This document shows, one piece after another, positions 12,679-29,212 of a stretch of DNA of 32,231 nt (the stretch's first letter is position 1; each line of letters starts with the position of its first letter). The position numbers were made by a program, and so were the translations under genes. The stretch covers positions 1-32,231 of the forward strand of contig JAFWRC010000293.1 in NCBI GenBank assembly GCA_017508825.1. Reading direction: 5' to 3'. Under the pieces are notes generated by a model, which did not search any database, was not told the DNA's origin, and worked only from the letters and a program-made list of their open reading frames with translations. This stretch comes from Lachnospiraceae bacterium. Its GTDB lineage: Bacteria; Bacillota; Clostridia; Lachnospirales; Lachnospiraceae.

Positions 12679-13284
12679 TTATTCTCCAAGAGCGCACGAA
12701 TCATATTCTATTGATTGAATAGTATCGTCATCATTTAAGATGAATACCAGCTTCATCCCGCCCTTTTCGTAAGACAGCTTGTGCCCGTCCTCCTGATAGC
12801 CGTCTCCGTACACTTCGACGATCTTGTCTTTATTCATGGAAAGATCCACGCCTTCCGCCGTTGCCACATTATCCGTCTTCAATAAGATATAGTAAATACG
12901 GTCCGTATCACCATCCGGCCATGTATTGATCTCATAATCCGCAAAGGTGTAAAAGTGCGCCATTCCCTGCGCCGCGCAGCTCTCCTCTTCATAATGGGTA
13001 TACTCTCCCAGCGCTTCCGGCACCGTTGTCACATCCATATCCGGAAACAGTCTGACGCCGGAGATCTCAAACGCATACCCTGCCGGCGCGCTCTCCGTTG
13101 TCCCTGCAGGCGCATCCGCATCTGCTGCCGGCGTTGTTTCTGCTCCCGCAGCCTCTGCCGTTGCCGCCACCGGTGCATTGCTCCCGTTATCACCACCGCC
13201 GATCGTCTTCACTTCTTCGCCACAGGCTGCCAGACTTACTGCCAGAACCCCCGCTGCTGCTACCGCCATCATCTTCCTTTTCAT
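12679..13284 (-). CDS. Small secreted lipoprotein, last gene of the dlt-like operon
   Basis: I do not recognise the family. The 201-residue product opens with a lipoprotein signal: MKRK, a hydrophobic core, then lipobox SLAAC with Cys at residue 21. It should therefore be anchored on the outer face of the membrane. Residues about 25-70 are an Ala/Thr/Pro/Glu-rich linker. From about 75 onward there is a compact acidic domain containing FEISGVRLFPDMD, YILLKTDNVAT and EVYGDGYQEDGHKLSYE. AAGGAGG lies upstream of the ATG. It starts 21 nt after the SGNH gene and is clearly the operon's last member. A role as acceptor or chaperone for the surface modification is possible but unproven. Confidence 0.8.
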   Translation of the reverse strand: MKRKMMAVAAAGVLAVSLAACGEEVKTIGGGDNGSNAPVAATAEAAGAETTPAADADAPAGTTESAPAGYAFEISGVRLFPDMDVTTVPEALGEYTHYEEESCAAQGMAHFYTFADYEINTWPDGDTDRIYYILLKTDNVATAEGVDLSMNKDKIVEVYGDGYQEDGHKLSYEKGGMKLVFILNDDDTIQSIEYDSCALGE

Positions 13285-13305
13285 CGTTTATCCTCCTTCA
13301 ATAAT

Positions 13306-14370
13306 TTACTCTTTCGCCGGCAGCCCTGCTGCCAGCCTTGCTTCCTGCTGTGCGCGTTCCGCATCATACGCAGCCGCCTTCTCCTCCCAGATGGCTGCCA
13401 CCGCTGCATCTCCCCTGCGGTCAGGCACTGCGAAATCTTCCGATAAGATACCGCCGAAATATCCGGCCAGTTTTTCTGCTCCGGCAAGATTTAAATGCAG
13501 CCCTGCATCGTAAGTATCCGTTGCAAAATCCAGGCCGTATGCATCCGGCTCCTCCAAAAAGTTGTAATACGGCAGGTTATATTTTGCCGCATACGCATCC
13601 ACCTGCGCTTCCCACTCATCGTACCAGTGCGGCATCAGGGAAGGCGCCTTCACCAGGATCAGCTGCACTCCGTTCTCCTCACACAGGATGCGCATCTTAT
13701 CCAGATACCGCCACGCATTTTCACCGAATTCATAATCGCCCAAAGGTCTGGGATCCGGAATGTTCTCCGCCGGGCGCACATCCACGCGCATATAGTAGCC
13801 GCTGTGCGTCACCTTATCCCGATGAAACAGATAATTTACATCGTCCGCATCCAGTTCCTGCCATCTGGAATGATAGCGCAGGATTGGAAAAACATAATCC
13901 GCAAAGTTCTCCTCCGGCAGCATCGACGCTTTGATCGCATCCACCTTGCTCAGCGACCAGCGCATGCCGTCCAGCGTCATACGGTTGTACGTCTCCTTCT
14001 GGGGCGTATCATATTTTAACGACAGCACATTAAAGACAAAGACCTGCGGTTTCTCGTAACGCAGCGTATCTTCCATTAAATAGTAGGACTGCCAGATCAG
14101 CTGCTGGGCGCTGCCGCGGATGTAACTGCTGATCCCGTACTCCCGCCAGAGCGTTACCGTGGAGATGTTCTCATACAGCTCGCAGTCTCCCACGAAGACC
14201 ACATCGTGGTTCATGGTCTCCTGATAAAACTCCGCCGTCATAGCGCCTTCCACGATACCGTGCATATATTTCGGCATCAGAAGACGCTGCAGCAGCCAGA
14301 GACCTGCCACGATAAGAACGATCGATATGAGCCCGTAAACGGGCACTTTTATGGAACGTCTTTTTTTCAT
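13306..14370 (-). CDS. DltD-like SGNH-fold membrane-anchored protein with Cys in place of the catalytic Ser
   Basis: The product is 354 residues from the ATG at 14368-14370. An earlier in-frame GTG lies inside the AAAGGTG ribosome binding site. One N-terminal membrane helix (about residues 10-30) precedes an extracellular SGNH/GDSL-type domain. Block I reads VVFVGDCELYENIS, so Cys63 occupies the place where GDSL enzymes have serine. The C-terminal block TYDAGLHLNLAGAEKL carries a conserved Asp288/His292 pair. In dlt systems DltD works outside the membrane with MBOAT DltB in transfer of the acyl group to the polymer. This gene directly follows an MBOAT gene (8-nt gap), as expected. A hydrolase or transferase using a thiol nucleophile, or an inactive binding protein, are alternatives. 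Confidence 0.75.
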   Translation of the reverse strand: MKKRRSIKVPVYGLISIVLIVAGLWLLQRLLMPKYMHGIVEGAMTAEFYQETMNHDVVFVGDCELYENISTVTLWREYGISSYIRGSAQQLIWQSYYLMEDTLRYEKPQVFVFNVLSLKYDTPQKETYNRMTLDGMRWSLSKVDAIKASMLPEENFADYVFPILRYHSRWQELDADDVNYLFHRDKVTHSGYYMRVDVRPAENIPDPRPLGDYEFGENAWRYLDKMRILCEENGVQLILVKAPSLMPHWYDEWEAQVDAYAAKYNLPYYNFLEEPDAYGLDFATDTYDAGLHLNLAGAEKLAGYFGGILSEDFAVPDRRGDAAVAAIWEEKAAAYDAERAQQEARLAAGLPAKE

Positions 14371-14378
14371 TAACACCT

Positions 14379-15971
14379 TTAAAACTGATTATAGATAAAC
14401 TGCGAAGCATCAAAGCCGATGCCGTACGCGCCGAAGATCAGCACGATCAGAAACAGCCCGTACCAGATCACGAAGCGCAGCGGATAAGCCAGTCCGGCGA
14501 TCCGCTCCCGCACACTCTTTCTCCTCTGCAGCAGGCTTACGATCAGGATCAGTACCGCCCCTGCGATCACCACCGCATAGTCCGCCACCGAAAGCCCCAG
14601 TTCCAGCAGGCTTCCGTTCGCCAGTTCTCCCCAGTTACGCGCGCTCACCATACTGCCAAACATCCGGATCGTCAGCGGCACGTCGCGATAGCAGTCGAAC
14701 AGTCGCAGGGTGCTTACGATCAACAGCGTGCGTCCCACACGGAACGCATCCCACCAGCGCCTGCCCTCCACCTTGATATGTGCATGGAACCGGCGGTAAA
14801 ACGGCTCCAGCTCCTGCGAGATGAGCAGCACTACGCAGTTTCCCAGTCCCCATACGATAAAGTTCCAGCTCGCGCCATGCCAGATACCGGTCGCAAACCA
14901 CACGATAAAGCAGGACAGATACACCGGTACGCGTTTGCCCACCGCATCTCCCAGATGCTTTCTCGACCAGCGGCTGGTATTTAACATAAACTTGCTGACG
15001 GAAACCGGATAAAAGATATAATCCGTAAACCACGATCCCATGGTGATATGCCAGCGATTCCAGAACTCCTTTAGGTTCTTCGAAAAATACGGCCGGTCAA
15101 AGTTTTCCTTCACACCGATCCCCAGCGCCTGCGCGATACCGATGGTGATATCGATGCCGCCGGTGAAATCGCAGTACAGTTCCACCGCGTAAAAGACCAT
15201 CCCCGCAAAGACAAAGGCCCCTGAATACGTTTCCGTATCCCCGATGATCGTCGTCACCGCGCCAAGCAGCCGGTCTGCGATCACCATCTTCTTAAAGTAG
15301 CCCCACAGCACACGCTGCAGGCCGAACGCTACCGTCTTCTTTTCAAACGGATGCTCCCGGTACAGCCCTTCCGCCAGATCGTCAAAACGGCTGATGGGTC
15401 CCTGTACCAGTTGCGGGAAGAACGATACAAACAATGCATAACGGAAAATGTTCTTCTCTGCTTCCGTCTTGCCCCGGTACACGTCGATCAGATAGCCGGC
15501 GCTCTGGAACACATAAAAAGAGATACCCATGGGCAGCATGATGTCCAGAAACGAAAGCTGCTTATCACTATGAAAGACCGAAAGCACACCGTTGATATTG
15601 GCGATCGTAAAATTGGTATACTTGACCACTGCCAGCATACCGACGGACAGCAGGATCCCGAGCGCCATCAGCCGACGCTGCTTTGTCTTTTCCGCCGCCT
15701 TCCACTCTTTGCGCTCTTCTCTGGACATCTCCGCTTTATGTGCTGCCAGATACGCTTTATCCGCCGCCTGCCTTTTGCCGATGGCCAGCGCCGTCAGGTA
15801 GGTCGTCACCGTTGCCGCCAGCAGGTAGAACAGGTTGGTCCATCCGCTGAAGTAATAAAAAACATAGCTGCCTAAGAGCAGCAGCTCCCACTGCCACTTC
15901 TTCGGCACCAGATAATAGAGAAGTATGAGTACCGCCAGAAAGGCGATAAATGCGTAAGAAGTAAATAACAT
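14379..15971 (-). CDS. MBOAT-family O-acyltransferase, DltB/AlgI-like
   Basis: This is a polytopic membrane protein of about 530 residues. It starts MLFTSYAFIAFLAVLILLYYLVP, the usual opening of DltB/AlgI proteins, and I choose the ATG at 15969-15971 for that reason. A longer frame would run into the upstream gene. Many hydrophobic segments follow. The family core is clear: QGPISRF, then ELYCDFTGGIDI, FWNRWHITMGSWFTDYIFYP and GIWHGASWNF with the presumed catalytic His near residue 365. Proteins of this class pass an acyl group from a cytoplasmic carrier across the membrane to a surface sugar polymer. Here the donor would be the carrier protein encoded two genes upstream. It sits 7 nt after the transglutaminase-like gene. 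Confidence 0.92.
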   Translation of the reverse strand: MLFTSYAFIAFLAVLILLYYLVPKKWQWELLLLGSYVFYYFSGWTNLFYLLAATVTTYLTALAIGKRQAADKAYLAAHKAEMSREERKEWKAAEKTKQRRLMALGILLSVGMLAVVKYTNFTIANINGVLSVFHSDKQLSFLDIMLPMGISFYVFQSAGYLIDVYRGKTEAEKNIFRYALFVSFFPQLVQGPISRFDDLAEGLYREHPFEKKTVAFGLQRVLWGYFKKMVIADRLLGAVTTIIGDTETYSGAFVFAGMVFYAVELYCDFTGGIDITIGIAQALGIGVKENFDRPYFSKNLKEFWNRWHITMGSWFTDYIFYPVSVSKFMLNTSRWSRKHLGDAVGKRVPVYLSCFIVWFATGIWHGASWNFIVWGLGNCVVLLISQELEPFYRRFHAHIKVEGRRWWDAFRVGRTLLIVSTLRLFDCYRDVPLTIRMFGSMVSARNWGELANGSLLELGLSVADYAVVIAGAVLILIVSLLQRRKSVRERIAGLAYPLRFVIWYGLFLIVLIFGAYGIGFDASQFIYNQF

Positions 15972-15978
15972 AATTTGA

Positions 15979-17694
15979 TCACTGTATCTCCGGATAAAGC
16001 GACGGATCGTAATTATGCGACTTGTAATGCGCATTGGAATACTTCATCAGCGTCTCATTATCCACATAGAAGAAACTCTTTCCGTCCGAACGCCGGCATG
16101 CATCAAAATGATACCAGCCCTCGCCAAGGTTGATCAGATTCCAGAAATGCAGGCGCCTGGTCGGGATCTTCTCGATCAGGATATTGTCGATCCCTGCGTG
16201 GGTCAGCAGGATCTGTGACGTGATCGCATAGGTATAGCAGTCGCCGCTGCGCTTATACAATCCGTCATAAGCCGCCTGTACCGGATCGTCATGATTGCTC
16301 TTGTCGATATAGCCCATGGAATGCACCCACTTGAAGATGGCTTCCGCTTTTTCATAGCCGCTCATCTCCGGTGTGGTGATCTTTTCCAACACCTGGTCCG
16401 CCAGCAGGTCCACTGCTTCCTGCGTCACCTGGGAAGGCATCGCCACCGTCAGCTTCACTGTCCGGGTCGCCTGGTTTCCCGCGCTGTCGGTCGCGCTGTA
16501 GACTACGTTATAGGACCCCAGTTCCTGCAGGTTTACTTCGGACGAATCCACTACCAGTTCCACTTCCGCATCGTGGTTGTCCGTAACCGTCACGTTTCTC
16601 TTATAGGATACGCTGTCCCCGATCACCACGCGCATATCCTGCACACCGGTGATCATCGGTGCTTCCGTATCCGCCTTCACATTGTAAGATACCGGCATCT
16701 GCACCTGATTTCCTGCTGCATCGGTATAGACTGCCTCCACAGTGAAATCGCCTTCGGCCGATGTATCCGGCTCTGTCACAAAGCTGCCGCTCACCGGAGA
16801 CGCATCCGCTGCCAGCGAGATGAAATCCTCTGCCGTCAGTTCGTCCCCCAGAAAGATCTGCAGATCCTGCGTCACCACTTCCGGCGGCGTCGTATCGATC
16901 ATCTTCAGATGCGACGGATAGACCCCGCCGTATGTCTCAAGATATACGGTATATTCCCCGACCAGATCCTGAAATGGATGTTCGTCGGTCAGTCCGTTTG
17001 CACTCAGATAAGCCTCTGTTTCTTCCGCTGTCGCGTATCGGATCTCCTGTCCTTCCGCCACGGAAAATACCTCCGGGTCCGGCAGGCCGCAGCCCGCTTC
17101 CGCGGTCATCTCCTGCAGCACAGGCACCACGCTCATATGCGCCATCAGTTCCGTCACATTGCCGCCGGCATCCGTCAGCAGGATAAACACTTCGCTGTCC
17201 CGCACGGTATCAAACAGCGGCTGCGCCGCAAAACGCACCGTCACCGCCGTCTCATCCGTGATCCCCTCCAGGAATTCCTCCGGCGTATGCACCTGTCCCG
17301 GAATGGAGACGATATCTACGGTCTCCGCCGTCGGTGCCACGGTATCCACGATCTCCAGTTCCGAATGATAGGTAAAATGCCCGGACTGGATATATACCTG
17401 GTATACCCCCGGCACTCTCGTATCGATCGGGTTGCCCATATCGGCAATGATCATGCCGGTATAGTTCTTTTTCATAAAATCCGCAGCAGTGATCTCCGTT
17501 CCGGCTTCCGCCCTGCAATGGCGGTACACCCGGTCGAAGCAGGCTTTCCAAAGTACCACGCCGAGAACAGACAACACCAAAAGCACGCCCACCACGATCA
17601 GGATGCGCCGCCATTTGTTTGTCCCTTTTTTCGAAACCGTTCTCTCTGTTCTTCCAGTCCTTCTTGTCCGCACTACCGCGCCCGTCATTCCCAT
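15979..17694 (-). CDS. Membrane-anchored transglutaminase-like protein with Ig-like repeats
   Basis: The 571-residue product has a basic N-terminus, one membrane helix at about residues 30-52, and then an extracellular part. Three or four bacterial Ig-like modules follow, each introduced by a D-T-x-x-P phrase (VDTVAPT, IDTTPPEV, ADTEAPMI) and containing TDAAGN or TDSAGN turns. The last about 130 residues form a transglutaminase/cysteine-protease-like domain. It has the full triad: Cys486 in RSGDCYTYA, His516 in RLHFWN and Asp531 in YHFDAC. The family breaks or remakes peptide-type bonds, and the target here is unknown. It lies between the carrier gene and the MBOAT gene, tightly packed, so it belongs to the operon. 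No good ribosome binding site precedes the ATG, which suggests coupling to the upstream gene. Confidence 0.88.
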   Translation of the reverse strand: MGMTGAVVRTRRTGRTERTVSKKGTNKWRRILIVVGVLLVLSVLGVVLWKACFDRVYRHCRAEAGTEITAADFMKKNYTGMIIADMGNPIDTRVPGVYQVYIQSGHFTYHSELEIVDTVAPTAETVDIVSIPGQVHTPEEFLEGITDETAVTVRFAAQPLFDTVRDSEVFILLTDAGGNVTELMAHMSVVPVLQEMTAEAGCGLPDPEVFSVAEGQEIRYATAEETEAYLSANGLTDEHPFQDLVGEYTVYLETYGGVYPSHLKMIDTTPPEVVTQDLQIFLGDELTAEDFISLAADASPVSGSFVTEPDTSAEGDFTVEAVYTDAAGNQVQMPVSYNVKADTEAPMITGVQDMRVVIGDSVSYKRNVTVTDNHDAEVELVVDSSEVNLQELGSYNVVYSATDSAGNQATRTVKLTVAMPSQVTQEAVDLLADQVLEKITTPEMSGYEKAEAIFKWVHSMGYIDKSNHDDPVQAAYDGLYKRSGDCYTYAITSQILLTHAGIDNILIEKIPTRRLHFWNLINLGEGWYHFDACRRSDGKSFFYVDNETLMKYSNAHYKSHNYDPSLYPEIQ

Positions 17695-17701
17695 GAGATG
17701 A

Positions 17702-17941
17702 TCACTCGTCCAACAATTCGCTTACCAGCTGTGCCAATGCTTCCATGGAATTGAAATGCTCCGGTACGATCTTGTCCGCCGGGATCGCCACATCAAATTC
17801 CTCATCGATACGCGCGATGATCGTTACGATATCAAACGAATCTATGATCTTGCGCTCTACCAATTCATCCTCCGTCTCAAAATTCACATCCGGATGCAGC
17901 TCCCCCAGCACCTCCAGCAATACTTCTTTGATCTCGTCCAT
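17702..17941 (-). CDS. Acyl/D-alanyl carrier protein, DltC-like
   Basis: This is a 79-residue acidic carrier with the phosphopantetheine attachment motif IIDSFDIVTII. Ser35 would carry the 4'-phosphopantetheine arm. The DSF version of the motif, rather than the DSL of fatty-acid ACP, is the pattern of DltC-type and other stand-alone amino-acid carriers. The ATG directly abuts the stop codon of the adenylation enzyme (no spacer). The ribosome binding site GGAGG lies inside that gene's last codons, so translation is coupled one-to-one. It would receive the activated substrate and present it to the MBOAT protein. Confidence 0.9.
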   Translation of the reverse strand: MDEIKEVLLEVLGELHPDVNFETEDELVERKIIDSFDIVTIIARIDEEFDVAIPADKIVPEHFNSMEALAQLVSELLDE

Positions 17942-19483
17942 TTAATGTTCCCTCCGCCCTTTCTTTTCCGCCAGCAGTTCTTCATACATTTCCTTCAGCC
18001 GTACACGATTGATCTTGCCGTTGGCGGTAAACGGCATTTCGTCCAGTTTCTCGATACGGTTCGGCAGCATATACCTGGGCAGCATATCCTTCAGTTCTGC
18101 CATCAGCGCCGCTTTGTCCGGATCCCCCACATAATACAGGATGATCCGTTCCTTTTCTTTATAGTAGATACAGCCGCACAGCTTCACGCCATCCACCGAG
18201 TTCACGTTTGCCTCGATCTCACCCAGCTCGATGCGGTGCCCCATATGCTTGATCTGATAATCCTTGCGGGAAACAAATACGAGCTCGCCCCGCTCATTGT
18301 ACCGTCCCAGATCCCCGGTCCGGTAGATCAGTTCCGGATAAGCGCTCTGCAGAGGATTCTGTACAAAAGCCTCACGGGTCTTTTCCGGATTGTTATAGTA
18401 TCCAAGGGTCACACAGGTGCCGCGGATGCAGATCTCGCCCGTTTCATCCCCGGAAGCCAATCGATTGTCATCCGTGAGTAGCAGGATCTGCGTATTCTTA
18501 AACGGCCGTCCGATGGGGATCGGTTCGTCCTCTTCCAGGGAACGTTCCACGTGAAAGTAACAGCTCATCCCCGTGCATTCCGTCGGACCGTACAGGTTCG
18601 TGAAATGCGCCTCCGGCAATGCTTCCCGCCATAGCTTAAACTGCTTTTTCGGGAACACTTCGCTGCCGAATGCCACGGTCTTCAGATATTCCGGCCGAAT
18701 CTGCTCAAAGGTACCATAGGCAGAGATCATTGTCAATGCCGAAACGACCCAGCAGATCGTATTGATCTTTTTCTCATTCAGGTATTCCACCAGTTTTGCC
18801 GGGAACATAAACAACTGTCTCGGCACCAGGTAAGTGGTCGCGCCGAATTTGATCGTCGGATAGAGTTCCTTTAAACACGCATCAAAATACAGCGGCGACT
18901 GGTTGCCGAATACCGTATCTTCCGAAAAGCCAAGTGTCTCCGATAACTGCTCCACATAATCGATCACGGATCTGTGGCAGGCCGCAACACCCTTGGGCAC
19001 ACCGGTAGACCCGGAAGTAAATACGATGTAGATCGGATCGATATCCATAGCATTCCGGCAGATCTCACGGATCTTTTCATACTCCGGCTGCGTACGGATG
19101 ATGTCATCGTACAGCACGCACTTTGTATCTCCGGCAAAAGTCTGCGCCTTATCGATCGTTGTCTCATCACAGATCATCAGACGCGGCTTACAGTTCTCCA
19201 GGATCAGCCGGATCCTGGCCGCCGGCATTTCTTCATCGATCGGCACATAAAAACAGCCGGATGCGATCACGCCGAAAAACGTGGCAATGGTACGCACACT
19301 CTTATCCATAAATACCAGGACCGGTTCGTGCGAATATCCGCCCTGCATCAGGCCGGTCGCAACGGAATGCAGCGTATCATAAAGCCTGCGGAAGGTCATC
19401 GCCTCCGTTTCATCTACGAATGCCGGCTTATCCGGTACCCGTTCTACCGTTTCATATAAATAATCCAATACATGGTTTTGCAT
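17942..19483 (-). CDS. Amino-acid adenylation enzyme, DltA-like
   Basis: The product is 513 residues from the ATG at 19481-19483 (MQNHVLDYLYETVE); AAGGTGA lies five nt upstream. It belongs to the ANL adenylating superfamily and shows the core motifs in order. These are VFTSGSTGVPKG (about 155-165), NLYGPTECT (about 296-304), YRTGDLGRYNERG, HRIELGEIE and the C-terminal FTANGKINR with catalytic Lys. Asp201 in LYFDACLKELYP matches the Asp that binds the alpha-amino group in amino-acid-activating members, so an amino-acid substrate is likely. In DltA the segment before the YGPTE motif reads F-C-G-E. Here it is FGSEVFP with Gly at the Cys position, so D-alanine specificity cannot be assumed. First gene of the operon, with its own promoter. 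Confidence 0.9.
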   Translation of the reverse strand: MQNHVLDYLYETVERVPDKPAFVDETEAMTFRRLYDTLHSVATGLMQGGYSHEPVLVFMDKSVRTIATFFGVIASGCFYVPIDEEMPAARIRLILENCKPRLMICDETTIDKAQTFAGDTKCVLYDDIIRTQPEYEKIREICRNAMDIDPIYIVFTSGSTGVPKGVAACHRSVIDYVEQLSETLGFSEDTVFGNQSPLYFDACLKELYPTIKFGATTYLVPRQLFMFPAKLVEYLNEKKINTICWVVSALTMISAYGTFEQIRPEYLKTVAFGSEVFPKKQFKLWREALPEAHFTNLYGPTECTGMSCYFHVERSLEEDEPIPIGRPFKNTQILLLTDDNRLASGDETGEICIRGTCVTLGYYNNPEKTREAFVQNPLQSAYPELIYRTGDLGRYNERGELVFVSRKDYQIKHMGHRIELGEIEANVNSVDGVKLCGCIYYKEKERIILYYVGDPDKAALMAELKDMLPRYMLPNRIEKLDEMPFTANGKINRVRLKEMYEELLAEKKGRREH

Positions 19484-19531
19484 GCGTCTCACCTTCCGGC
19501 TGCGTTTTCTCTTTCCGAATACAGCACGCCT

Positions 19532-19560
19532 ATTTTATCGTTATCGTTTGCTTTTGTCAA
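19532..19560 (-). promoter_or_regulatory. Promoter of the dlt-like operon
   Basis: On the minus strand TTGACA (19555-19560), 17 nt, then TAAAAT (19532-19537), placed between the rplL terminator and the adenylation gene. Predicted start is near 19525, giving a leader of about 42 nt. The near-consensus elements predict strong constitutive transcription. Confidence 0.88.
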
Positions 19561-19576
19561 GATATGGTATCGCATT

Positions 19577-19608
19577 AAAAAAGGGATCCCCATATCTTGG
19601 AGATCCCC
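19577..19608 (-). terminator. Terminator of rplJ-rplL
   Basis: On the minus strand GGGATCTCC (19607-19599), a 7-nt loop, GGGGATCCC (19591-19583) and TTTTTT (19582-19577). The stem has nine pairs, eight Watson-Crick and one G-T. It separates rplJL from the inserted dlt-like operon. Confidence 0.92.
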
Positions 19609-19628: not shown

Positions 19629-20009
19629 TTACTTCAGAGTAACCTTTGCGCCAACTTCTTCCAGCTTTGCCTTGATGTCGTTTGCTTCGTCCTTGGAAGC
19701 GCCTTCCTTTACCATCTTCGGAGCGCCTTCTACCAGTTCCTTGGACTCCTTCAGGCCCAGACCTGTGATGGTACGGATAACCTTGATAACATCCATCTTC
19801 TTCTCGCCGAAGCTGGTCAGCTCTACGTCGAACTCAGTCTTCTCTTCCTCAGCTGCGCCGCCTGCTGCTGCACCTGCTGCTGCAACAACAACACCTGCTG
19901 CTGCGGATACACCGAACTCTTCCTCGCAAGCCTTTACGATCTCACTCAGCTCAAGTACGCTGTACTCTTTGATCATTTCAATAAATTCCTCTTTGGACAA
20001 CTTAGCCAT
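19629..20009 (-). CDS. rplL: 50S ribosomal protein L7/L12
   Basis: L7/L12 is the multicopy stalk protein that recruits translation GTPases. The 126 residues show the N-terminal dimerisation domain ([20 protein letters not shown]) and an Ala/Gly-rich hinge (about 37-55). The C-terminal factor-binding domain is EKTEFDVEL...[18 protein letters not shown]...GAKVTLK. GGAGGT precedes the ATG by 8 nt. It follows rplJ by 35 nt and is ended by a strong terminator, so rpoB downstream is not in the same transcript. Confidence 0.98.
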
Positions 20010-20886: not shown

Positions 20887-21603
20887 TTACATAGTTATCA
20901 ATTCTTCAAACTCTCTCTTCAGTTTTCCGCACGATTCCACGCTCACCTTGGCCATCAGCTGCATCACATCGAGATAGCCGGCGCCGATGTGGTTGTCGCG
21001 GTGAGCCATGGACAGTTCCGTGCACCCGAGAAGGATCACTTCGCTCCCGGCGCGGCGCAGCTCGCCGGCTGCACGTTCAAAGCGCTCCATGTTGACCGGA
21101 CGGTTGGCCTTGACATCGTCGTAGATTACGGACATCACGTCCTGCTGGGCGTTTTCTGTGGGAAGTGCCACGCGGATCCCTGCCTGTTCCAGCTGCTTCT
21201 GAAAAAAGCCGCAGCGCACGGTTCCGTCCGTCGCCATGATGCCGACACATTTCACGCCCCGTACTGCCAGATACTCCGCAGTCTCGGTGATAATATCGAT
21301 CACCGGCACCGGGATCTCCTCATTCAGCCGCCGGTAAAAGAAATTTGCCGTAACACAGGGAATGGCGATCAGTTCCGCGCCGTTCTCTGCCAGTTTCTTT
21401 CCGATCCGGATCATGGGCGGACAGGGGTCCTCTTCGCTCTTTCCAAGCAGAAAACGGGTACGATCAGGGATCTGCGGGCAGCTGTGCAGCAGCACTTCAA
21501 AATGCTCCTGATCCGTTGCCGCATCCGTCATCTCCGTCACCATCCGAAGAAAATATGCACTTGCCATGGGGCCGAGCCCCCCGATCACACCTAAAGTCTT
21601 CAT
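20887..21603 (-). CDS. Aspartate/glutamate racemase family protein
   Basis: The product is 238 residues from the ATG at 21601-21603 (MKTLGVIGGLGPMASAYF), with AAGGGA six nt upstream. The fold is that of cofactor-independent Asp/Glu racemases: the glycine-rich GVIGGLGP opening, first catalytic Cys83 in AIPCVTANFF and second Cys194 in LLGCTELSM. The usual first motif is PCNTAH; here it is PCVTANF, so substrate preference may differ. Such enzymes interconvert L- and D-aspartate, glutamate or a wider range of amino acids. It follows the CapA-family gene by 83 nt. Together they could suggest a D-amino-acid polymer, but no ligase (CapB/CapC-like) is in view. Confidence 0.87.
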   Translation of the reverse strand: MKTLGVIGGLGPMASAYFLRMVTEMTDAATDQEHFEVLLHSCPQIPDRTRFLLGKSEEDPCPPMIRIGKKLAENGAELIAIPCVTANFFYRRLNEEIPVPVIDIITETAEYLAVRGVKCVGIMATDGTVRCGFFQKQLEQAGIRVALPTENAQQDVMSVIYDDVKANRPVNMERFERAAGELRRAGSEVILLGCTELSMAHRDNHIGAGYLDVMQLMAKVSVESCGKLKREFEELITM

Positions 21604-21686
21604 TAAATATCCCTTCAGGTCCCCTCTCATCCGTCAACTGCGCCGACAGTTCGTCACCTGGCAGAAGCCGGAAGAAAGTATCCCTG

Positions 21687-23048
21687 TCATTTTGCGGTAA
21701 TATATCCGTCCCCGTCGATATTCACGCTCGGAGAGATCGACCGCATATAATCCAGCACCCGTCCTGCTTCCCCGTCGTGCAGCATCTTCACCGTACTGTT
21801 CGTCTGCAGGCACGGTACAAAACACAGCCTCTCGACAGCGCCGTCCGCCAGCGTCAATTCGATCAGGCAGGTATCCAGCGTCTTGGAATTGAACCAGAAG
21901 TTACCCATACTGTAGACCACCGGTACACCGTTTTTGTATGCCACCTGCTGCAGGATGTGCGGATGCGCGCCTATGATGGCATCAGCGCCGGCCTCCAGGA
22001 ATTTCGGAAGCTGTTCATTCTGCCCCCAGTCCGGTTCCACTTCCAGCTCCGTGCCCCAGTGGATCAGCAGGATCACAAAGTCACTGTTCGCCTCGGCTGT
22101 CCGGATCGCATCCAGCGTCATATTGATATCCGGAAAGCTGCGCAGCAGGCCCGCCTGCGTATCCGTAGCCGCTTTGGAATGCGGACTGTTGTATCGCTCG
22201 ATCTGTGTCGCGCATACGATCCCGATCTTCATCCCGCCTGCAACGATATAGATCGGTTTTTTTGCCTCTTCCAGGTTCCATCCGCCGCCGGCATAGGGAA
22301 TATTGGCATCCGCCAGTGTCGTCAGCGTATCTTCAAACGCCTGCAGTCCATAATCAAATGCATGGTTGTTCGCTACTCCGGCGATATCCACGCCCATATT
22401 CTTCAGGATCTCCACAGAGGAAGGATCCGCCCGGAACGTATAGGTCTTTCCTTCACAGGGGGAACCGCCCTTCGAATACGGGAACTCATTGTTCACGATG
22501 CACACATCCGCATCCCGCATCCGTCCCAGCAGATCAGAAGAAATGCAGTTTTCCAAAACATATCCGTTCTGACGATATTTCGAGTAGATGGCATAGCCGG
22601 GATCAAAAAGGATGTCCCCGGTAAAAGCAAAGGTGATCTTTCCCTCTTCCTTCGCGTCCACGGTATAGACGTGTTCTGCGGAAATACCACTGCCCAGGGC
22701 AACTGCTCCCGGGATTGCTTCCTGAACAGCCTCTGTCGGTTCTGCCGTTTCCCTGGATCCCTGCTCACCTTCGGCCGGTGTCACATCGGTCGCAGGCACC
22801 AGATCCACAGCGGTCTGAACTGCCGGATCCGCTGCCGGTTCTGTCGGCGTACCTGTCTCCGGCTCTGCCGTCGGCAAAACTGCCTGCTCCGGAGCGCCCT
22901 CCCCCGGCGCACCGTCTGCCGGTCCGGGTTCCTGCGTCTTCGATGCCCTGCCTGCCAGCAGAAGGATCGTGCCCATGACCAGCACCACTGCCAGCGTGAC
23001 CAGGAAGATCTTCAGTTGTTTCGGAAAACGCTTCTTTCTTTTCTTCAT
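21687..23048 (-). CDS. CapA-family (poly-gamma-glutamate capsule type) metallophosphatase-like protein
   Basis: The product is about 453 residues from the ATG at 23046-23048 (MKKRKKRFPKQL). A membrane helix (about 14-33) is followed by a Pro/Glu/Thr/Ala-rich extracellular linker (about 36-120) and then the CapA/PGA_cap domain. Its motifs are FTGDILFD, NNEFPYS, VANNHAFDYG, IHWGTELE and GAHPHILQ, which line the metal site in this family. The function of stand-alone CapA proteins is uncertain; some belong to capsule synthesis and some may be surface phosphatases or hydrolases. The start codon is only about 10 nt past the T run of the rplA terminator, and there is no visible promoter between. The gene is likely expressed by read-through of the rplKA transcript. 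The ribosome binding site (AGCAGG) is weak. Confidence 0.88.
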   Translation of the reverse strand: MKKRKKRFPKQLKIFLVTLAVVLVMGTILLLAGRASKTQEPGPADGAPGEGAPEQAVLPTAEPETGTPTEPAADPAVQTAVDLVPATDVTPAEGEQGSRETAEPTEAVQEAIPGAVALGSGISAEHVYTVDAKEEGKITFAFTGDILFDPGYAIYSKYRQNGYVLENCISSDLLGRMRDADVCIVNNEFPYSKGGSPCEGKTYTFRADPSSVEILKNMGVDIAGVANNHAFDYGLQAFEDTLTTLADANIPYAGGGWNLEEAKKPIYIVAGGMKIGIVCATQIERYNSPHSKAATDTQAGLLRSFPDINMTLDAIRTAEANSDFVILLIHWGTELEVEPDWGQNEQLPKFLEAGADAIIGAHPHILQQVAYKNGVPVVYSMGNFWFNSKTLDTCLIELTLADGAVERLCFVPCLQTNSTVKMLHDGEAGRVLDYMRSISPSVNIDGDGYITAK

Positions 23049-23057
23049 ATCCTGCTC

Positions 23058-23088
23058 ATAAAACAACCCCCATGAATGATCATGGGGG
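23058..23088 (-). terminator. Terminator after rplA
   Basis: On the minus strand CCCCCATGA, a four-base loop, TCATGGGGG (23088-23067) and then TTGTTTT. The 9-bp stem is perfect. It closes the rpmG-secE-nusG-rplKA block and nearly touches the start of the CapA-family gene. Confidence 0.85.
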
Positions 23089-25581: not shown

Positions 25582-26253
25582 TTATGCGTTTTCCAGCTCT
25601 GCCGCATATTCTTTCAGAAAGATCTTTCTGTACTTATTATAATTCCATACCGCAGAGATCGCTTTATCATGGAATACCCATGGCTGCTTCTGTACCGGCA
25701 CCACCAGTTTATACCCTTTGCGCCGCAGCTCACAGCTCTGGGATGCATCATACAGATCCCAGCCGTCAAAAATGTCCGCGCGCCATTTCAGATCTGCCGT
25801 AGTCGCCATCAGCAGACCGTCCACGCATTCCACTTCATCCATGCCATCATCGAGCTGGTAGGAATAATGCTCGTAATCGGTCTTGCCCGTTCCGCTGTTG
25901 TACAGCGCCCCTACCCTCGGCGCGCCCCAGAGCAGCATATCCTTCGGAAGCTTCGGGATCCCCGTCACCCCCACCATGCCGATCTCCGGATCCGAATCAA
26001 AGATCTTGAGCAGATCCCCGAGAAAATGCCGGTTCAGGATAAATACATCGTGATGGATAAAGATCTTGTATTTTGCATCCGTCACCTGCATCGCAGCATT
26101 GTAGCCGGAAGCCATCCCGGTAGCATTCGTCACCGGAACGCATTCCATCACATAACCTTCGGGCACCTTCAGGTTACTGATATAATAAACACATTCATTA
26201 TAATACTCTTCTTTATTTGTAACGATCAGAAAACAAAACTTTTTCCCGTTCAT
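25582..26253 (-). CDS. Glycosyltransferase-family protein (GT2-like)
   Basis: The 223-residue product begins MNGKKFCFLIVTNKEEYYNECVYYI. It has the Rossmann-like opening, the GMASGYNAAM segment and KYKIFIHHDVFILN with an acidic metal-site candidate (HHDV, 67-70). IGMVGVTG and VECVDGLLMATT follow, a layout of short family-2 glycosyltransferases that act on a nucleotide-sugar. No membrane segment is evident. It starts 3 nt after the stop of the acidic protein gene, with AGGAG about 10 nt before the ATG, so the two are one operon. Sugar donor and acceptor cannot be told. Confidence 0.78.
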   Translation of the reverse strand: MNGKKFCFLIVTNKEEYYNECVYYISNLKVPEGYVMECVPVTNATGMASGYNAAMQVTDAKYKIFIHHDVFILNRHFLGDLLKIFDSDPEIGMVGVTGIPKLPKDMLLWGAPRVGALYNSGTGKTDYEHYSYQLDDGMDEVECVDGLLMATTADLKWRADIFDGWDLYDASQSCELRRKGYKLVVPVQKQPWVFHDKAISAVWNYNKYRKIFLKEYAAELENA

Positions 26254-26256
26254 CCC

Positions 26257-27207
26257 TTATGACTCCTGCAGTTTCTCCAGCTTTTCCGCGATCAGCGCCT
26301 GCTCTTCCTCCGAACATTGCTCCTTCATCATATTGAGCAGATAGACTGCCTCTTTCTTCTGACCGTTCTCCTCATACAGATCCGCCAGGATCAGCGCAAC
26401 TTTGCCTTTTTCTCCAAGCTCACTCTCCTGCAGCATCTGTACGACAAAGTGAACCGTCAGGCACCATTCCTGCAGCCATATCATATAGTCGGAATAGTCC
26501 AGGCCAAACTGCATCCTTCGAAGGAAAAACATCATCTGTTCATATACCACCGTATAATCATCCAGGTATTCGATGCTGTCATAGATCGTGACCGGCTCTG
26601 CCCCGGCCTCCATCTGATAGATCGAGCCGGTGGTCTTAAATGCCGCCAGTTCCGCATCGTACTGTGAGATACGGTCATACTGCGGCTCATTGATGATCGA
26701 AGTCAGTGCATTGTAGCCTTCCGGCGTACGCTCCTGCAGTTTCTCGTTGATGCGTCCTTTGTAGATCACGATCCCCGCCGTGATCGAACGCTTCGCCTCC
26801 GCCAGCTGTTCTAGGTATGCATCCGCGTCAAAAGCAGGCGCTGCCGGTGCTTCGGCCGATTCTTCCGTCGATCCGCCTTCCGACTCCTGCGCTGCCGCTT
26901 CTTCTGTCACGTCTTCCGCAGATCCGCTTTCCTGCTCCTCATCTGCCGTTGCGGTGCCGTCCGGTCCCCCGTCTTCCGTCTCTGAAACGGTTTCCTTATC
27001 AGATTTTTCTGCCGGCTTCTCTTTTCCTTCCGGATCCGCCTTCTCTTCCTGTTCCGCCGCTTCAGAAAGTTCTGTTTCCGCAGAATTTTCTGTTTCCGCA
27101 TTTTTTTCCGCTTCCACAGTTTTTTCCGCTCCCGCAGGATTTTCCGTTTCCGCCGGATCTTCCGCTTCTATAATATCAATTGTAGTCTCTTCTTTCAGTT
27201 CTGACAT
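26257..27207 (-). CDS. Acidic low-complexity protein with helical C-terminal domain, unknown function
   Basis: I do not recognise this 316-residue protein. I take the ATG at 27205-27207 (MSELKEETTIDII) because GAGGG precedes it and the upstream frame lies in the promoter region. Residues about 10-125 are a very acidic Glu/Ala/Thr/Ser/Pro tract built of ETEN, AEK and EE-type phrases, probably disordered. From about 130 on there is a folded, mostly helical domain (EQLAEAKRSITAGIVIYKGRINEKL, QMMFFLRRMQFGLDYSDYMIWLQEW). The end resembles a TPR-like helical pair (ALILADLYEENGQKKEAVYLLNMMKEQ). No signal peptide or membrane helix. Co-transcribed with the downstream glycosyltransferase. Confidence 0.75.
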   Translation of the reverse strand: MSELKEETTIDIIEAEDPAETENPAGAEKTVEAEKNAETENSAETELSEAAEQEEKADPEGKEKPAEKSDKETVSETEDGGPDGTATADEEQESGSAEDVTEEAAAQESEGGSTEESAEAPAAPAFDADAYLEQLAEAKRSITAGIVIYKGRINEKLQERTPEGYNALTSIINEPQYDRISQYDAELAAFKTTGSIYQMEAGAEPVTIYDSIEYLDDYTVVYEQMMFFLRRMQFGLDYSDYMIWLQEWCLTVHFVVQMLQESELGEKGKVALILADLYEENGQKKEAVYLLNMMKEQCSEEEQALIAEKLEKLQES

Positions 27208-27244
27208 CCGTCCCTCTTGGTTCACATAACATATTTTCTCAATG

Positions 27245-27253
27245 AGTATAGCA
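27245..27253 (-). promoter_or_regulatory. Extended -10 promoter upstream of the acidic-protein gene
   Basis: On the minus strand TGCTATACT gives an extended -10 (TATACT at 27245-27250) about 38 nt before the start codon. The -35 region is weak (TTCTCA). Two direct copies of CGTAAACAA lie upstream at 27283-27291 and 27313-27321. Confidence 0.55.
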
Positions 27254-27281
27254 TAGAACAATTCATTTGAGAACTATTATT

Positions 27282-27321
27282 TCGTAAACAATGCGTATTT
27301 TTATCACAATTCCGTAAACAA
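27282..27321. repeat. Two direct repeats CGTAAACAA spaced 30 bp apart
   Basis: CGTAAACAA occurs at 27283-27291 and 27313-27321, upstream of a promoter. A period of 30 bp is close to three helical turns, so they could be a paired operator. A related inverted core (GTTTACG) occurs at about 27417-27423. Confidence 0.4.
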
Positions 27322-27365
27322 CCGGTGTATAACTCGATTTGTATATACATTTGCGGGAGTCTTTA

Positions 27366-27404
27366 CAGAAAGAACGAACCCCGGGATCATCGTCTCGGGA
27401 TTCG
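27366..27404 (-). terminator. Probable terminator of the FliD-like gene
   Basis: On the minus strand CGAATCCCG and CGGGGTTCG (27404-27375) form a GC-rich imperfect stem followed by TTCTTTCTG. The T run is interrupted, so the strength is uncertain. It lies about 50 nt past the stop of the FliD-like gene. Confidence 0.55.
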
Positions 27405-27456
27405 CCCACATTCCGCGTTTACGGATCATTTCGCTTCGTATCCGTATGTTCCCGTT

Positions 27457-28770
27457 TTACATATACCCGTTAAACAGCATTCCGCTGTATGCGCTGGTCA
27501 CATAAGGATTTGCAAAATGCGGTTTCGTCGGGTTCTTATATGCCACGATCCGCTTCTCCACATAATCCATCGGATTGAGCTGCACCTCATTCGCCTTGCG
27601 CAGCGCCGATTTCGTGAAGTCCTTTAAGCTGTCCAGCCCGTTCGGAGCTTCCGCATCGTTCAATACCTCCGACAGTTTTTCCTCATCCACCGCCAGTGTT
27701 CCGTCTTCCTGCTGCGTTACACCCAGGCGTTCCAGTCCGGAATTGTAAAATGCGCCGTTTACCTTCATATCCCTTACCAGCAGATTCGTTCTCGGCTGTT
27801 TTTCCGCGAATTCCGCAGTCGCCTTGATAAAGCTGTTGTAGGAACCCGCCAGCGATATGATATTATCTTTCATTGACTCCACATCCGGCTTGTACCCGAT
27901 CAGTACGCTCTTGCCCGGCGCCGCTTCCTTCAGCCGCACGTCATAGCTGTTGTTCAGTCGCACATCATTGCCCGGTGCCGTATGCGTCTCTCCGTTGATC
28001 GTATAGATCGAATCCGTGCCTTCCTGGCTCACCTTGCGTATTCCCAGATAATCCACGATGCCGCGCTGCTGGCTGGTATTCTCATCCGATATGGTGAAAT
28101 GTCCGCCCTCGGCGCTCTTATCACCGACCGATTTGGACCGGATCACCAGCGCCGTGTTGCCCAGATCATCCTCATCCACCTCAGCCTGCAGGCCCAGGTT
28201 GAAATTATTGATCAGGCGGGCCAGGCGCCCCTGGATCTCCTTGTTGGTATCCGTCTGGCTGATCGTAAACTGCAGCTCATAATTGGAAGAAAGCGTCTGC
28301 ACGTCAAAGGAATAATTTCCTTCCGCGATGCCCGCATCGTCCGGGTTCAGGTACTTGCCTACATTGACCTGCGGTTTGGCCAGCTGCCGCACCATCAGTT
28401 CCACCGGCTCCGTTTCTTCGCCGGCCTTCTGCGTATTGCTGCCGCGGTCCAATACCTCTGCGATCTCCGAGTCGGAAGAAAACGCCGTCTTCTGGTTAAA
28501 GATCGTTGCATCATCAAGTCCGCCGATGGTTCCCACTTCCGAGCGGAACTTCATGGCGTTCTCTTTCATATTAATGGTGTACTCTTCCACATCTTTGGAA
28601 CGATCCATCAAAAAGACGGGCTCGTCCTTACTGATCTTGACAATGGACTTATAAATGTCCTGAAGATCCTTCTTCTTGTGGGAATCAAAACGATTGGAAG
28701 AAGACCTGGGCACAAGATCGGCCTGGTAATAATTATAGACATTTGATAAAACAGCTGTATTGATCGCCAT
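27457..28770 (-). CDS. FliD-like (flagellar filament cap related) protein
   Basis: The product is 437 residues, MAINTAVLSNVYNYYQADL. AAAGGAGG lies shortly before the ATG. The middle and C-terminal half recall FliD/hook-associated protein 2. Features are a beta-rich repeat region (YSFDVQTLSSNYELQFTISQ), a coiled SLAGSYNSFIKATAEFAEK segment, GLERLGVTQQEDGTLAVDEEKLSEVLND and an end SAYSGMLFNGYM. The usual FliD N-terminal D0 phrase (G-x-D-T...LV) is missing; instead the N-terminus is Ser/Lys-rich. It may be a diverged cap, a hook-associated relative or a surface protein that reuses the fold. It is monocistronic, between a promoter with a long leader and a probable terminator. No other flagellar gene is visible; neighbours are glycosylation genes. 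Confidence 0.6.
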   Translation of the reverse strand: MAINTAVLSNVYNYYQADLVPRSSSNRFDSHKKKDLQDIYKSIVKISKDEPVFLMDRSKDVEEYTINMKENAMKFRSEVGTIGGLDDATIFNQKTAFSSDSEIAEVLDRGSNTQKAGEETEPVELMVRQLAKPQVNVGKYLNPDDAGIAEGNYSFDVQTLSSNYELQFTISQTDTNKEIQGRLARLINNFNLGLQAEVDEDDLGNTALVIRSKSVGDKSAEGGHFTISDENTSQQRGIVDYLGIRKVSQEGTDSIYTINGETHTAPGNDVRLNNSYDVRLKEAAPGKSVLIGYKPDVESMKDNIISLAGSYNSFIKATAEFAEKQPRTNLLVRDMKVNGAFYNSGLERLGVTQQEDGTLAVDEEKLSEVLNDAEAPNGLDSLKDFTKSALRKANEVQLNPMDYVEKRIVAYKNPTKPHFANPYVTSAYSGMLFNGYM

Positions 28771-29000
28771 ACCTGTACCCTCCTTTCTTCCATGATCGTT
28801 TGGATCTCTCCTCCGGCGCTATATCAGCTCCTATTCCATCCGGTGATTGATCCGATATCCGCACCTTCCGGCCGCCTCCGTTGCGTGCCGCTGCCTTTCA
28901 ATAATCCCGGATAACCGGTCTCTAAAGGCTCGTGCGAATGGGTACATCTGTTATAAGTCAGCTTCAAAAGGGTATAGTAACCCTTTTTATAGTTACTCTA

Positions 29001-29029
29001 AATATAGCATGTTTTTGTCAAACTTACAA
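29001..29029 (-). promoter_or_regulatory. Promoter of the FliD-like gene, with a long leader
   Basis: On the minus strand TTGTAA (29024-29029), 17 nt, then an extended -10 TGCTATATT (TATATT at 29001-29006). Transcription would start near 28994, leaving a 224-nt leader before the gene. The leader begins with a perfect 8-bp hairpin (AAAAGGGT with ACCCTTTT, 28966-28987). It contains one short open frame (28831-28947) with no convincing ribosome binding site. The rest of this gene-free stretch (29030-29118) is AT-rich and I see nothing else in it. Confidence 0.7.
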
Positions 29030-29117
29030 GAAATTTAAAAGAAATATTTGTGCAAAAAAGCAACAAAGATGTGCGTGAAACTTATGCATTTTTCACGCTC
29101 CGTTTCACAATTCTATC

Positions 29118-29207
29118 TCTTGGCTTCCCCTTGAGGGGCGCTGTGTGCCAGCGGCACACGTTCAGCGCCGACCGAGCCGGCAGGCGAGACCGCTGACTGA
29201 TGAGGTG
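29118..29207. repeat. REP/MITE-like palindromic element after the glycosyltransferase gene
   Basis: This GC-rich block of about 90 bp starts CTTGGCTTCCCCTTGAGGGG and ends CTGACTGATGAGGTG. In between it holds a strong hairpin: GGCGCTG and GTGTGCC on one side, GGCACAC and CAGCGCC on the other. From memory, blocks beginning with the TTCCCCTTGAGGGG motif and ending in TGATGAGGTG are widespread intergenic repeats in gut Firmicutes. It lies just past the stop codon of the glycosyltransferase gene and could fold as that transcript's 3' end. No transposase is present. Confidence 0.75.
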
Positions 29208-29212
29208 TTTCT

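What the first reader, a model, noticed from the sequence alone, without database searches (positions are those of the whole stretch)
12679..19608. A six-gene dlt-like operon is inserted between rplL and rpoB
rplJL and rpoBC are normally adjacent. Here they are separated by about 6.8 kb encoding, in order, a DltA-like adenylation enzyme, a DltC-like carrier, a transglutaminase-like Ig-repeat protein, a DltB-like MBOAT, a DltD-like SGNH protein and a lipoprotein. The operon has its own near-consensus promoter and a terminator shields it from rplL. The classical order is dltA-B-C-D with no transglutaminase or lipoprotein. The inference is a related but distinct surface aminoacylation system whose substrate and acceptor are unknown. 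Its location in a highly expressed housekeeping cluster suggests constitutive use.
Basis: partly seen in the sequence, partly recalled or inferred. Interest (0 to 1): 0.78.

Follow-up and report, generated by a model that had tools for sequence, protein, structure and literature searches.

The report
A D-amino-acid surface-decorating gene set
These genes look like a machine with which gut bacteria load a D-amino acid, most likely D-aspartate, on a carrier and hand it across the membrane to an unknown surface partner, using a cysteine where the usual relatives use a serine.

Summary
Six minus-strand genes (adenylation enzyme, carrier, transglutaminase-Ig protein, MBOAT, SGNH protein, lipoprotein) lie between rplL and rpoB, with a terminator and promoter kept in six genomes of the genus. 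This is not a dlt operon: adenylation enzyme, MBOAT and carrier score below the Dlt cut-offs, the pocket differs from true DltA, and the SGNH protein does not match DltD.

In 64 of 71 flanked relatives such a gene accompanies the same set, mostly far from rpoB. An asparagine-synthase-like gene joins in 10 of 71, and the pocket carries Lys or Arg near the side chain. Together these suggest D-Asp (or D-Asn).

The MBOAT carries the FxYxxF acyl-shuttle motif on its own C-terminus although a carrier feeds it; the SGNH nucleophile is Cys in 50 of 51 orthologues, Ser in 11 of 11 more distant MBOAT partners. Ten searches of open papers listed no description of this set. Acceptor and chemistry are untested. 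New variant of the MBOAT/SGNH acylation kind.

The parts
20887..21630 (-). Amino-acid racemase of the aspartate-racemase family (two catalytic Cys, Arg48/Lys164 equivalents), donor supply; separated from the rest by rplJL
   Evidence: TIGR00035 198 bits (cut-off 93.1) and NF052483 192.5 (cut-off 190); nearest PDB aspartate racemase 1jfl; a relative lies beside the module in 64 of 71 flanked loci
19582..19608 (-). Intrinsic terminator after rplL
   Evidence: a hairpin plus T-run at this place in 6 of 6 genus members, read by eye
19532..19560 (-). Sigma-70-type promoter TTGACA-17-TAAAAT of the module
   Evidence: same hexamers in 6 of 6 genus members
17942..19483 (-). DltA-like amino-acid adenylation enzyme, pocket code DAKAAGLGMK
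   Evidence: TIGR01733 AA-adenyl-dom over cut-off, DltA models below cut-off; code
17702..17941 (-). Phosphopantetheine carrier protein (79 aa)
   Evidence: PF00550; DltC model 28.3 bits against cut-off 68
15979..17694 (-). Membrane-anchored Ig-repeat protein with transglutaminase-like Cys-His-Asp domain
   Evidence: PF01841, PF16403; triad in 44 of 44 rows, window included
14379..15971 (-). MBOAT acyltransferase with C-terminal acyl-shuttle hexapeptide FIYNQF
   Evidence: PF03062; nearest PDB DltB 6bug/8jem; FxYxxF end in 48 of 50; the only minus-strand frame of the window that ends so
13306..14370 (-). SGNH-like transferase with Cys63 in place of the catalytic Ser (GDCE ... DTYDAGLHLN)
   Evidence: hhalign Prob 100 to 11 Ser-SGNH partners; Cys in 50 of 51
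12679..13284 (-). Lipoprotein with conserved SCA cysteine; fused to the SGNH protein in two relatives
   Evidence: lipobox in sequence; Cys in 107 of 108 rows; fusions L046, L075

Best explanation
A carrier-protein-fed MBOAT/SGNH envelope acylation system whose acyl group is a D-amino acid, most likely D-aspartate. Proposed steps: (1) the racemase turns L-Asp into D-Asp; (2) the adenylation enzyme activates D-Asp and loads it as a thioester on the carrier; (3) the MBOAT passes the aminoacyl group through the membrane to the Tyr of its own C-terminal FIYNQF hexapeptide (the job done by the separate protein DltX in dlt); (4) the SGNH protein takes the group on Cys63 as a thioester rather than a Ser ester; (5) with the lipoprotein and the transglutaminase-Ig protein it passes the group to a surface acceptor. 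Shown by sequence: gene set, co-occurrence, motifs, the Cys-for-Ser change, distinctness from Dlt. Inferred: every reaction, the D-Asp (or D-Asn) identity (about 0.55 on its own), the acceptor (unknown), and what the transglutaminase-like protein does.
For: Of 71 deduplicated flanked loci with this adenylation enzyme: racemase 64, carrier 70, transglutaminase-like protein 70, lipoprotein 63. Racemase catalytic Cys pair 87 of 87 rows, Arg48 86 of 87, Lys164 85 of 87 (numbering recalled; 4 rows are duplicates); nearest PDB entry is an aspartate racemase. Among 94 adenylation enzymes at least 50% identical to the window's (90 distinct), pocket position 239 is Lys in 91 and Arg in 3, and Asp235 is kept in 93 with one X; the ten true-DltA rows have Met at 239. 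Asparagine-synthase-like gene in 10 of 71 (PF00733 and GATase_7 checked for L241); in Lactococcus lactis racD lies in the operon of the D-Asp ligase and AsnH amidates the D-Asp (PMC4155827, passages). FxYxxF end in 48 of 50 MBOATs, the motif reported to carry the acyl group in PatA and DltX (PMC12148441, passages). Control: 3 of 5 true dlt operons of the same family show a separate small protein ending FxYxxF. Cys in 50 of 51 against Ser in 11 of 11; His kept in 142 of 142 rows and Asp in 139.
Against: The racemase family also holds enzymes for Arg/Lys/Orn (RacX) and homoserine (YgeA) (PMC8142540, abbreviation list). In 84 of 87 rows Ile, Val or Met stands where 1jfl has Asn after the first Cys. 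8 of 11 racemases scanned pass the 'cysteate racemase' cut-off. 7 of 71 loci lack a nearby racemase (one of them, L097, has it about 26 kb away). Lys at 239 also occurs in four distant enzymes (L059, L060, L083, L084) scored without racemase beside them. The same SGNH/transglutaminase/lipoprotein set also occurs with other adenylation enzymes or none, so the acceptor side is not specific to D-Asp. No structure model could be made. No experiment.
Confidence: 0.58

Rival explanations
1. Same machine, other amino acid: D-Glu, D-cysteate or a non-acidic D-amino acid is loaded.
For: NF052483 (cysteate racemase) is passed by 8 of 11 scanned racemases; the wider family contains non-acidic racemases; the Asn after the first catalytic Cys is replaced in 84 of 87 rows.
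Against: Arg48/Lys164 equivalents kept, Lys/Arg at pocket position 239, asparagine-synthase-like gene in 10 of 71.
Confidence: 0.27
2. An ordinary dlt operon that has been rearranged: D-alanine is put on teichoic acid.
For: Same enzyme classes; MBOAT nearest in PDB to DltB; DltA models match well though below cut-off; classical DltA over the cut-off in only 6 of 250 family genomes, so this set could stand in for it.
Against: DltA 284 and 294 bits against cut-offs 560 and 476, DltB 153 against 375, DltC 28 against 68; code unlike the ten true-DltA rows; SGNH against DltD Prob 14; no separate FxYxxF protein on this strand of the window; the racemase is not of the alanine type.
Confidence: 0.07
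3. Cys63 is not the acyl carrier; the transglutaminase-like protein makes the final bond and the SGNH protein is a scaffold.
For: Transglutaminase triad in 44 of 44 rows; one orthologue keeps Ser (L073).
Against: SGNH His kept in 142 of 142 rows and Asp in 139, which points to a working active site.
Confidence: 0.12
4. The genes make a small secreted D-Asp metabolite (NRPS-like) rather than decorating the surface.
For: The adenylation enzyme is about as close to NRPS domains as to DltA.
Against: Single adenylation domain, no condensation domain found, MBOAT plus SGNH plus lipoprotein plus membrane-anchored protein.
Confidence: 0.05

Closest known systems
Dlt pathway (DltA, B, C, D, X): D-alanylation of teichoic acids
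   Same: Adenylation enzyme plus carrier feed a MBOAT; Tyr shuttle motif; SGNH-type last step
   Different: No separate DltX (motif fused to the MBOAT); different pocket; SGNH not DltD and Cys for Ser; racemase, transglutaminase-like protein and lipoprotein added
PatA/PatB and related MBOAT-SGNH O-acetylation
   Same: MBOAT with C-terminal FxYxxF; separate SGNH partner
   Different: PatA uses acetyl-CoA and no carrier; PatB has Ser
L. lactis RacD/AslA/AsnH (D-Asp/D-Asn cross-bridge)
   Same: Racemase gene beside a D-Asp-activating enzyme; asparagine-synthase homologue in the pathway
   Different: Ligation there is cytoplasmic, by an ATP-grasp enzyme on peptidoglycan precursors; here carrier, MBOAT and an extracellular step
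McyF with the microcystin NRPS (role recalled; McyF structures listed)
   Same: Aspartate racemase serving an adenylation domain
   Different: Makes a peptide, not a membrane acyl relay

Membership tests
Dlt operon (D-alanyl-teichoic acid) | DltA over the curated cut-off (TIGR01734) | tested here: not met
   284.3 bits against 559.85
Dlt operon (D-alanyl-teichoic acid) | DltB over the curated cut-off (TIGR04091) | tested here: not met
   152.7 against 375
Dlt operon (D-alanyl-teichoic acid) | DltC over the curated cut-off (NF003464) | tested here: not met
   28.3 against 68
Dlt operon (D-alanyl-teichoic acid) | DltD family SGNH protein (PF04914) | tested here: not met
   no PF04914 match; hhalign Prob 14 against five true DltD
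Dlt operon (D-alanyl-teichoic acid) | Separate DltX microprotein | tested here: not met
   the MBOAT is the only minus-strand frame in the window that ends FxYxxF
Dlt operon (D-alanyl-teichoic acid) | D-Ala-type pocket | tested here: not met
   DAKAAGLGMK against DLMFLCTV(A/C)K in 10 of 10 rows L153-L162, six of which pass the DltA cut-off
Dlt operon (D-alanyl-teichoic acid) | D-Ala ester on teichoic acid | not testable with these tools
   needs chemistry
MBOAT-SGNH envelope acylation (PatAB-like mechanism) | MBOAT with C-terminal FxYxxF | tested here: met
   FIYNQF; 48 of 50
MBOAT-SGNH envelope acylation (PatAB-like mechanism) | SGNH partner gene beside the MBOAT | tested here: met
   window; MBOAT in 71 of 71 flanked loci, which were selected by the SGNH gene
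MBOAT-SGNH envelope acylation (PatAB-like mechanism) | Catalytic Ser in the SGNH protein | tested here: not met
   Cys63; Cys in 50 of 51 orthologues
MBOAT-SGNH envelope acylation (PatAB-like mechanism) | Acyl-CoA donor without carrier | tested here: not met
   carrier gene present here and in 70 of 71; the donor itself was not tested
Aspartate racemase (TIGR00035) | Two catalytic Cys and family cut-off | tested here: met
   198.1 bits against 93.1; Cys pair 87 of 87 rows
Aspartate racemase (TIGR00035) | Acts on aspartate | not testable with these tools
   Arg48/Lys164 kept but Asn83 replaced in 84 of 87 rows

The most novel reading that the evidence does not exclude
An ester-to-thioester-to-amide relay outside the cell: the D-aspartyl group goes from a MBOAT tyrosine to the SGNH cysteine, and perhaps to the transglutaminase cysteine, and is joined to an amine of a surface peptide, protein or amino sugar. 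This would be a cysteine-based SGNH transferase and an extracellular, ATP-free D-amino-acid amide ligation, with a plug-in donor side (D-Asp, other adenylation enzymes, or perhaps acyl-CoA).
Probability: 0.22. Interest if true: 0.86.

Novelty: new variant of a known kind. Interest (0 to 1): 0.66.

Why it matters
The SGNH review that I read in passages speaks of an invariant Block I Ser on which all SGNH family members depend (PMC9487903), and the PatAB paper sets carrier-plus-DltX systems apart from acyl-CoA-plus-fused-motif systems (PMC12148441). This set departs from both, in many gut and rumen bacteria of a family in which only 6 of 250 sampled genomes have a DltA over the curated cut-off. 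If D-Asp is the donor, the decoration would be zwitterionic rather than cationic, with a possible bearing on charge, antimicrobial-peptide response and host sensing (inference). The genes give short, direct in vitro tests.

Tried and rejected
Rejected: ordinary dlt operon. Rejected: assembly artefact (6 genus genomes share the insertion). Rejected: capA (PGA_cap, 21687-23066) as part of the module: it lies between rplA and rplJ in 11 of 19 genus members that have no racemase there. Not pursued: defence system (no PADLOC match for the seven proteins). PF13813 was a poor first query for the MBOAT (no match). A first count of co-occurrence (74 loci) held duplicates, because the two genome collections share contigs; the count used is the deduplicated one (71). 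The other deduplicated flanked loci, not in the 71: 6 with a distant or broken adenylation enzyme (racemase in 1, L098/L206, whose enzyme gene is in two pieces) and 8 with none (racemase in 1). The Cys count uses only loci found by the genome search, since the genome-contig scan used a pattern holding the Cys, and leaves out L071, whose SGNH frame is broken. The tree is a quick one, its careful search not finished, and it warns of long branches that meet.

Literature: ten searches of open papers only; none listed a paper on this gene set or on a Cys-SGNH/MBOAT pair. Most subscription papers are not held, so 'not in print' is not shown. Papers seen: PMC12148441, PMC4155827, PMC8142540, PMC11035591 and PMC9487903 in passages only (PMC11035591 not used for a claim); others as search listings. 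Recalled, from no call: NRPS specificity-code numbering and that Lys at position 239 occurs in Glu-activating domains (looked for such a code and found no paper); aspartate-racemase residue numbers 48, 82, 83, 164, 194; the role of McyF.
Full report
WHAT IS THERE. On the minus strand, between rplL (19629-20009) and rpoB (start read as 12475), lie an AMP-binding enzyme (17942-19483), a carrier (17702-17941), a transglutaminase-Ig protein (15979-17694), a MBOAT (14379-15971), an SGNH-like protein (13306-14370) and a lipoprotein (12679-13284). A hairpin with T-run follows rplL, and TTGACA-17-TAAAAT begins about 20 bases after it. In the six genus members with this layout the module promoter hexamers are identical and rpoB has its own promoter-like site.

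HOW SPECIFIC IS THE PLACE. In the genus, 35 genomes were searched with the SGNH protein. Eleven, own included, have a close match (51-100% identity). In six of these (own, G278, G267, G263, G261, G262) the six genes lie between rplL and rpoB. Two others (L098, L100) carry the module elsewhere, and three (L099, L101, L102) carry a MBOAT-SGNH form without adenylation enzyme, carrier or racemase hits. In 19 other genus members fetched at rplL (two of them, G251 and G269, are among the eleven), no module gene lies between rplL and rpoB; 18 show rplL followed by rpoB and one contig ends. One of the 19 (L144) has a MBOAT-like hit (35%) on the other strand between capA and rplJ. So the location is seen in one branch only. 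Among the 71 flanked loci below, 3 lie at rpoB, all of this genus.

THE MISSED PART. Between capA and rplJ lies a racemase gene (20887-21630). In G278, G267 and G261 it sits at the same place (81-93% identity). In G262 it sits beside capA but about 26 kb from rplJ. The G263 contig begins in rplL, so it cannot be tested. Elsewhere the usual order is transglutaminase-like, racemase, adenylation enzyme, carrier, MBOAT, SGNH, lipoprotein, with some shuffling. After removing duplicates and keeping loci with at least 7.5 kb before and 2.5 kb after the SGNH gene, 71 loci have the same type of adenylation enzyme (the window is not among them): transglutaminase-like 70, racemase 64, carrier 70, MBOAT 71, lipoprotein 63, asparagine-synthase-like 10; all seven parts together in 56. 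These loci were chosen by SGNH similarity, so SGNH presence is by construction.

WHO HAS IT. 132 of 250 genomes of the family have some match to the SGNH protein. 42 of them, own included, have a row of 43% identity or more over most of its length; the 41 others were fetched as L038-L078. The family is Lachnospiraceae by the titles of contigs of the same length that came with names (L183, L184). In a phylum draw 3 of 398 genomes, own included, pass E 1e-60, all in this family.

NOT DLT. NCBIfam scores against cut-offs: DltA 284 of 560, DltB 153 of 375, DltC 28 of 68. The own genome has no DltA over the cut-off, and 6 of 250 family genomes do; four further loci of that search (L158-L161) score a little below it and share the true-DltA code. 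Five true dlt regions of the family were fetched: order A-B-C-D, DltD with GSSE, and in 3 of 5 a small protein ending FxYxxF just after dltD. On the minus strand of the window the MBOAT is the only frame with such an end. In the quick tree the module adenylation enzymes form one clade (35 rows, support 99) and the ten true-DltA rows another (94).

DONOR. The ten pocket residues read DAKAAGLGMK in 72 of 107 rows (position names recalled). Among the 94 rows at least 50% identical to the window's enzyme (90 distinct), position 239 is Lys in 91 and Arg in 3; rows L153-L162 have DLMFLCTV(A/C)K in 10 of 10. A basic residue near the side chain and Asp235 fit an acidic amino acid. The racemase is nearest to Pyrococcus aspartate racemase among solved structures, with Cys82 and Cys194 in 87 of 87 rows, Arg48 in 86 and Lys164 in 85. 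Against this, the residue after the first Cys, Asn in that enzyme, is Ile 61, Val 19, Met 4, Asn 3; the wider family has non-acidic substrates; and 8 of 11 scanned pass the 'cysteate racemase' cut-off. The asparagine-synthase-like gene recalls AsnH, which amidates D-Asp in L. lactis. I put D-Asp (or D-Asn) at about 0.55.

MEMBRANE STEP. PMC12148441 reports that the FxYxxF Tyr of PatA is acylated, that DltX does the same job in Dlt, and that other MBOAT/SGNH pathways lack both a carrier and DltX. The window MBOAT ends in FIYNQF; 48 of 50 complete ones end in FxYxxF and the other two in FIYGKI and FIYGNM. So this system joins the carrier of Dlt with the fused motif of PatA.

THE CYSTEINE. Profile comparison of the SGNH protein with 11 SGNH partners of other MBOATs (L079-L089) gives Prob 100 over 337 columns and sets Cys63 on their Ser. 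In loci found without a Cys-bearing pattern, Cys is present in 50 of 51 (L073 has Ser; L071 left out, broken), and Ser in 11 of 11 of the distant set. The His is kept in 142 of 142 rows. The change goes with the acceptor side, not with the donor: of 130 rows with Cys, 122 have the transglutaminase-like protein or lipoprotein found nearby, and most of the other 8 have short flanks, though L099 has long ones; loci with other adenylation enzymes, or none, also have Cys. One of those other enzymes (L069) lacks Asp235, so may load no amino acid at all. The lipoprotein has its own conserved Cys (107 of 108 rows; 40 of 40 in the set free of the pattern) and is fused to the SGNH protein in L046 and L075, which ties the two in function.

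READING. I conclude that this is a modular acylation machine: a donor side that varies, a MBOAT with fused shuttle, and an acceptor side of Cys-SGNH, lipoprotein and transglutaminase-like protein. In the window the donor is most likely D-Asp. The acceptor is unknown. A thioester on Cys would be well suited to amide formation, so amines are as open as alcohols; this is inference.

LIMITS. No structure model, no chemistry, most named relatives are metagenome bins, and the co-occurrence counts come almost wholly from one family.

Noticed in passing
window 21687-23066 and L139, L141, L143, L144, L146-L152: A PGA_cap (CapA-like) gene lies between rplA and rplJ in 11 of 19 genus members without the racemase; a separate insertion in the same ribosomal cluster. 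In L135, L136, L138 and L140 the rplA-rplJ gap is about 3-6 kb with other, unread content.
   Followed up: partly
window 25582-31914: Upstream of nusG lie glycosyltransferases, a protein with a FliD_C match and a membrane protein with a weak Wzy_C match: perhaps flagellar or surface glycosylation.
   Followed up: no
G262 contig C62, about 18400-44100 (L142, L268): About 26 kb lies between the racemase and rplJ; its content was not examined.
   Followed up: no
L062, L064, L067, L068, L069: Variant sets with other adenylation enzymes (codes such as DVHAFAMHVK, and SMLALALDIK without Asp235) and no racemase; a Peptidase_M15_4-like gene lies near some.
   Followed up: partly
L066, L072, L074, L077, L099, L101, L102: Sets with MBOAT and Cys-SGNH but without hits for adenylation enzyme, carrier and racemase: perhaps fed by acyl-CoA.
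   Followed up: no
L231, L258, L048, L256: A D-Tyr-tRNA deacylase family gene follows the SGNH gene in one lineage (4 of 130 loci), in keeping with a D-amino acid in the cell.
   Followed up: partly
L060: A variant module lies downstream of rpoBC in another genus; chance or a second use of the same region.
   Followed up: no
module racemases, residue after the first catalytic Cys: Ile/Val/Met in 84 of 87 rows where the Pyrococcus aspartate racemase has Asn; unexplained, possibly a mark of altered substrate.
   Followed up: partly
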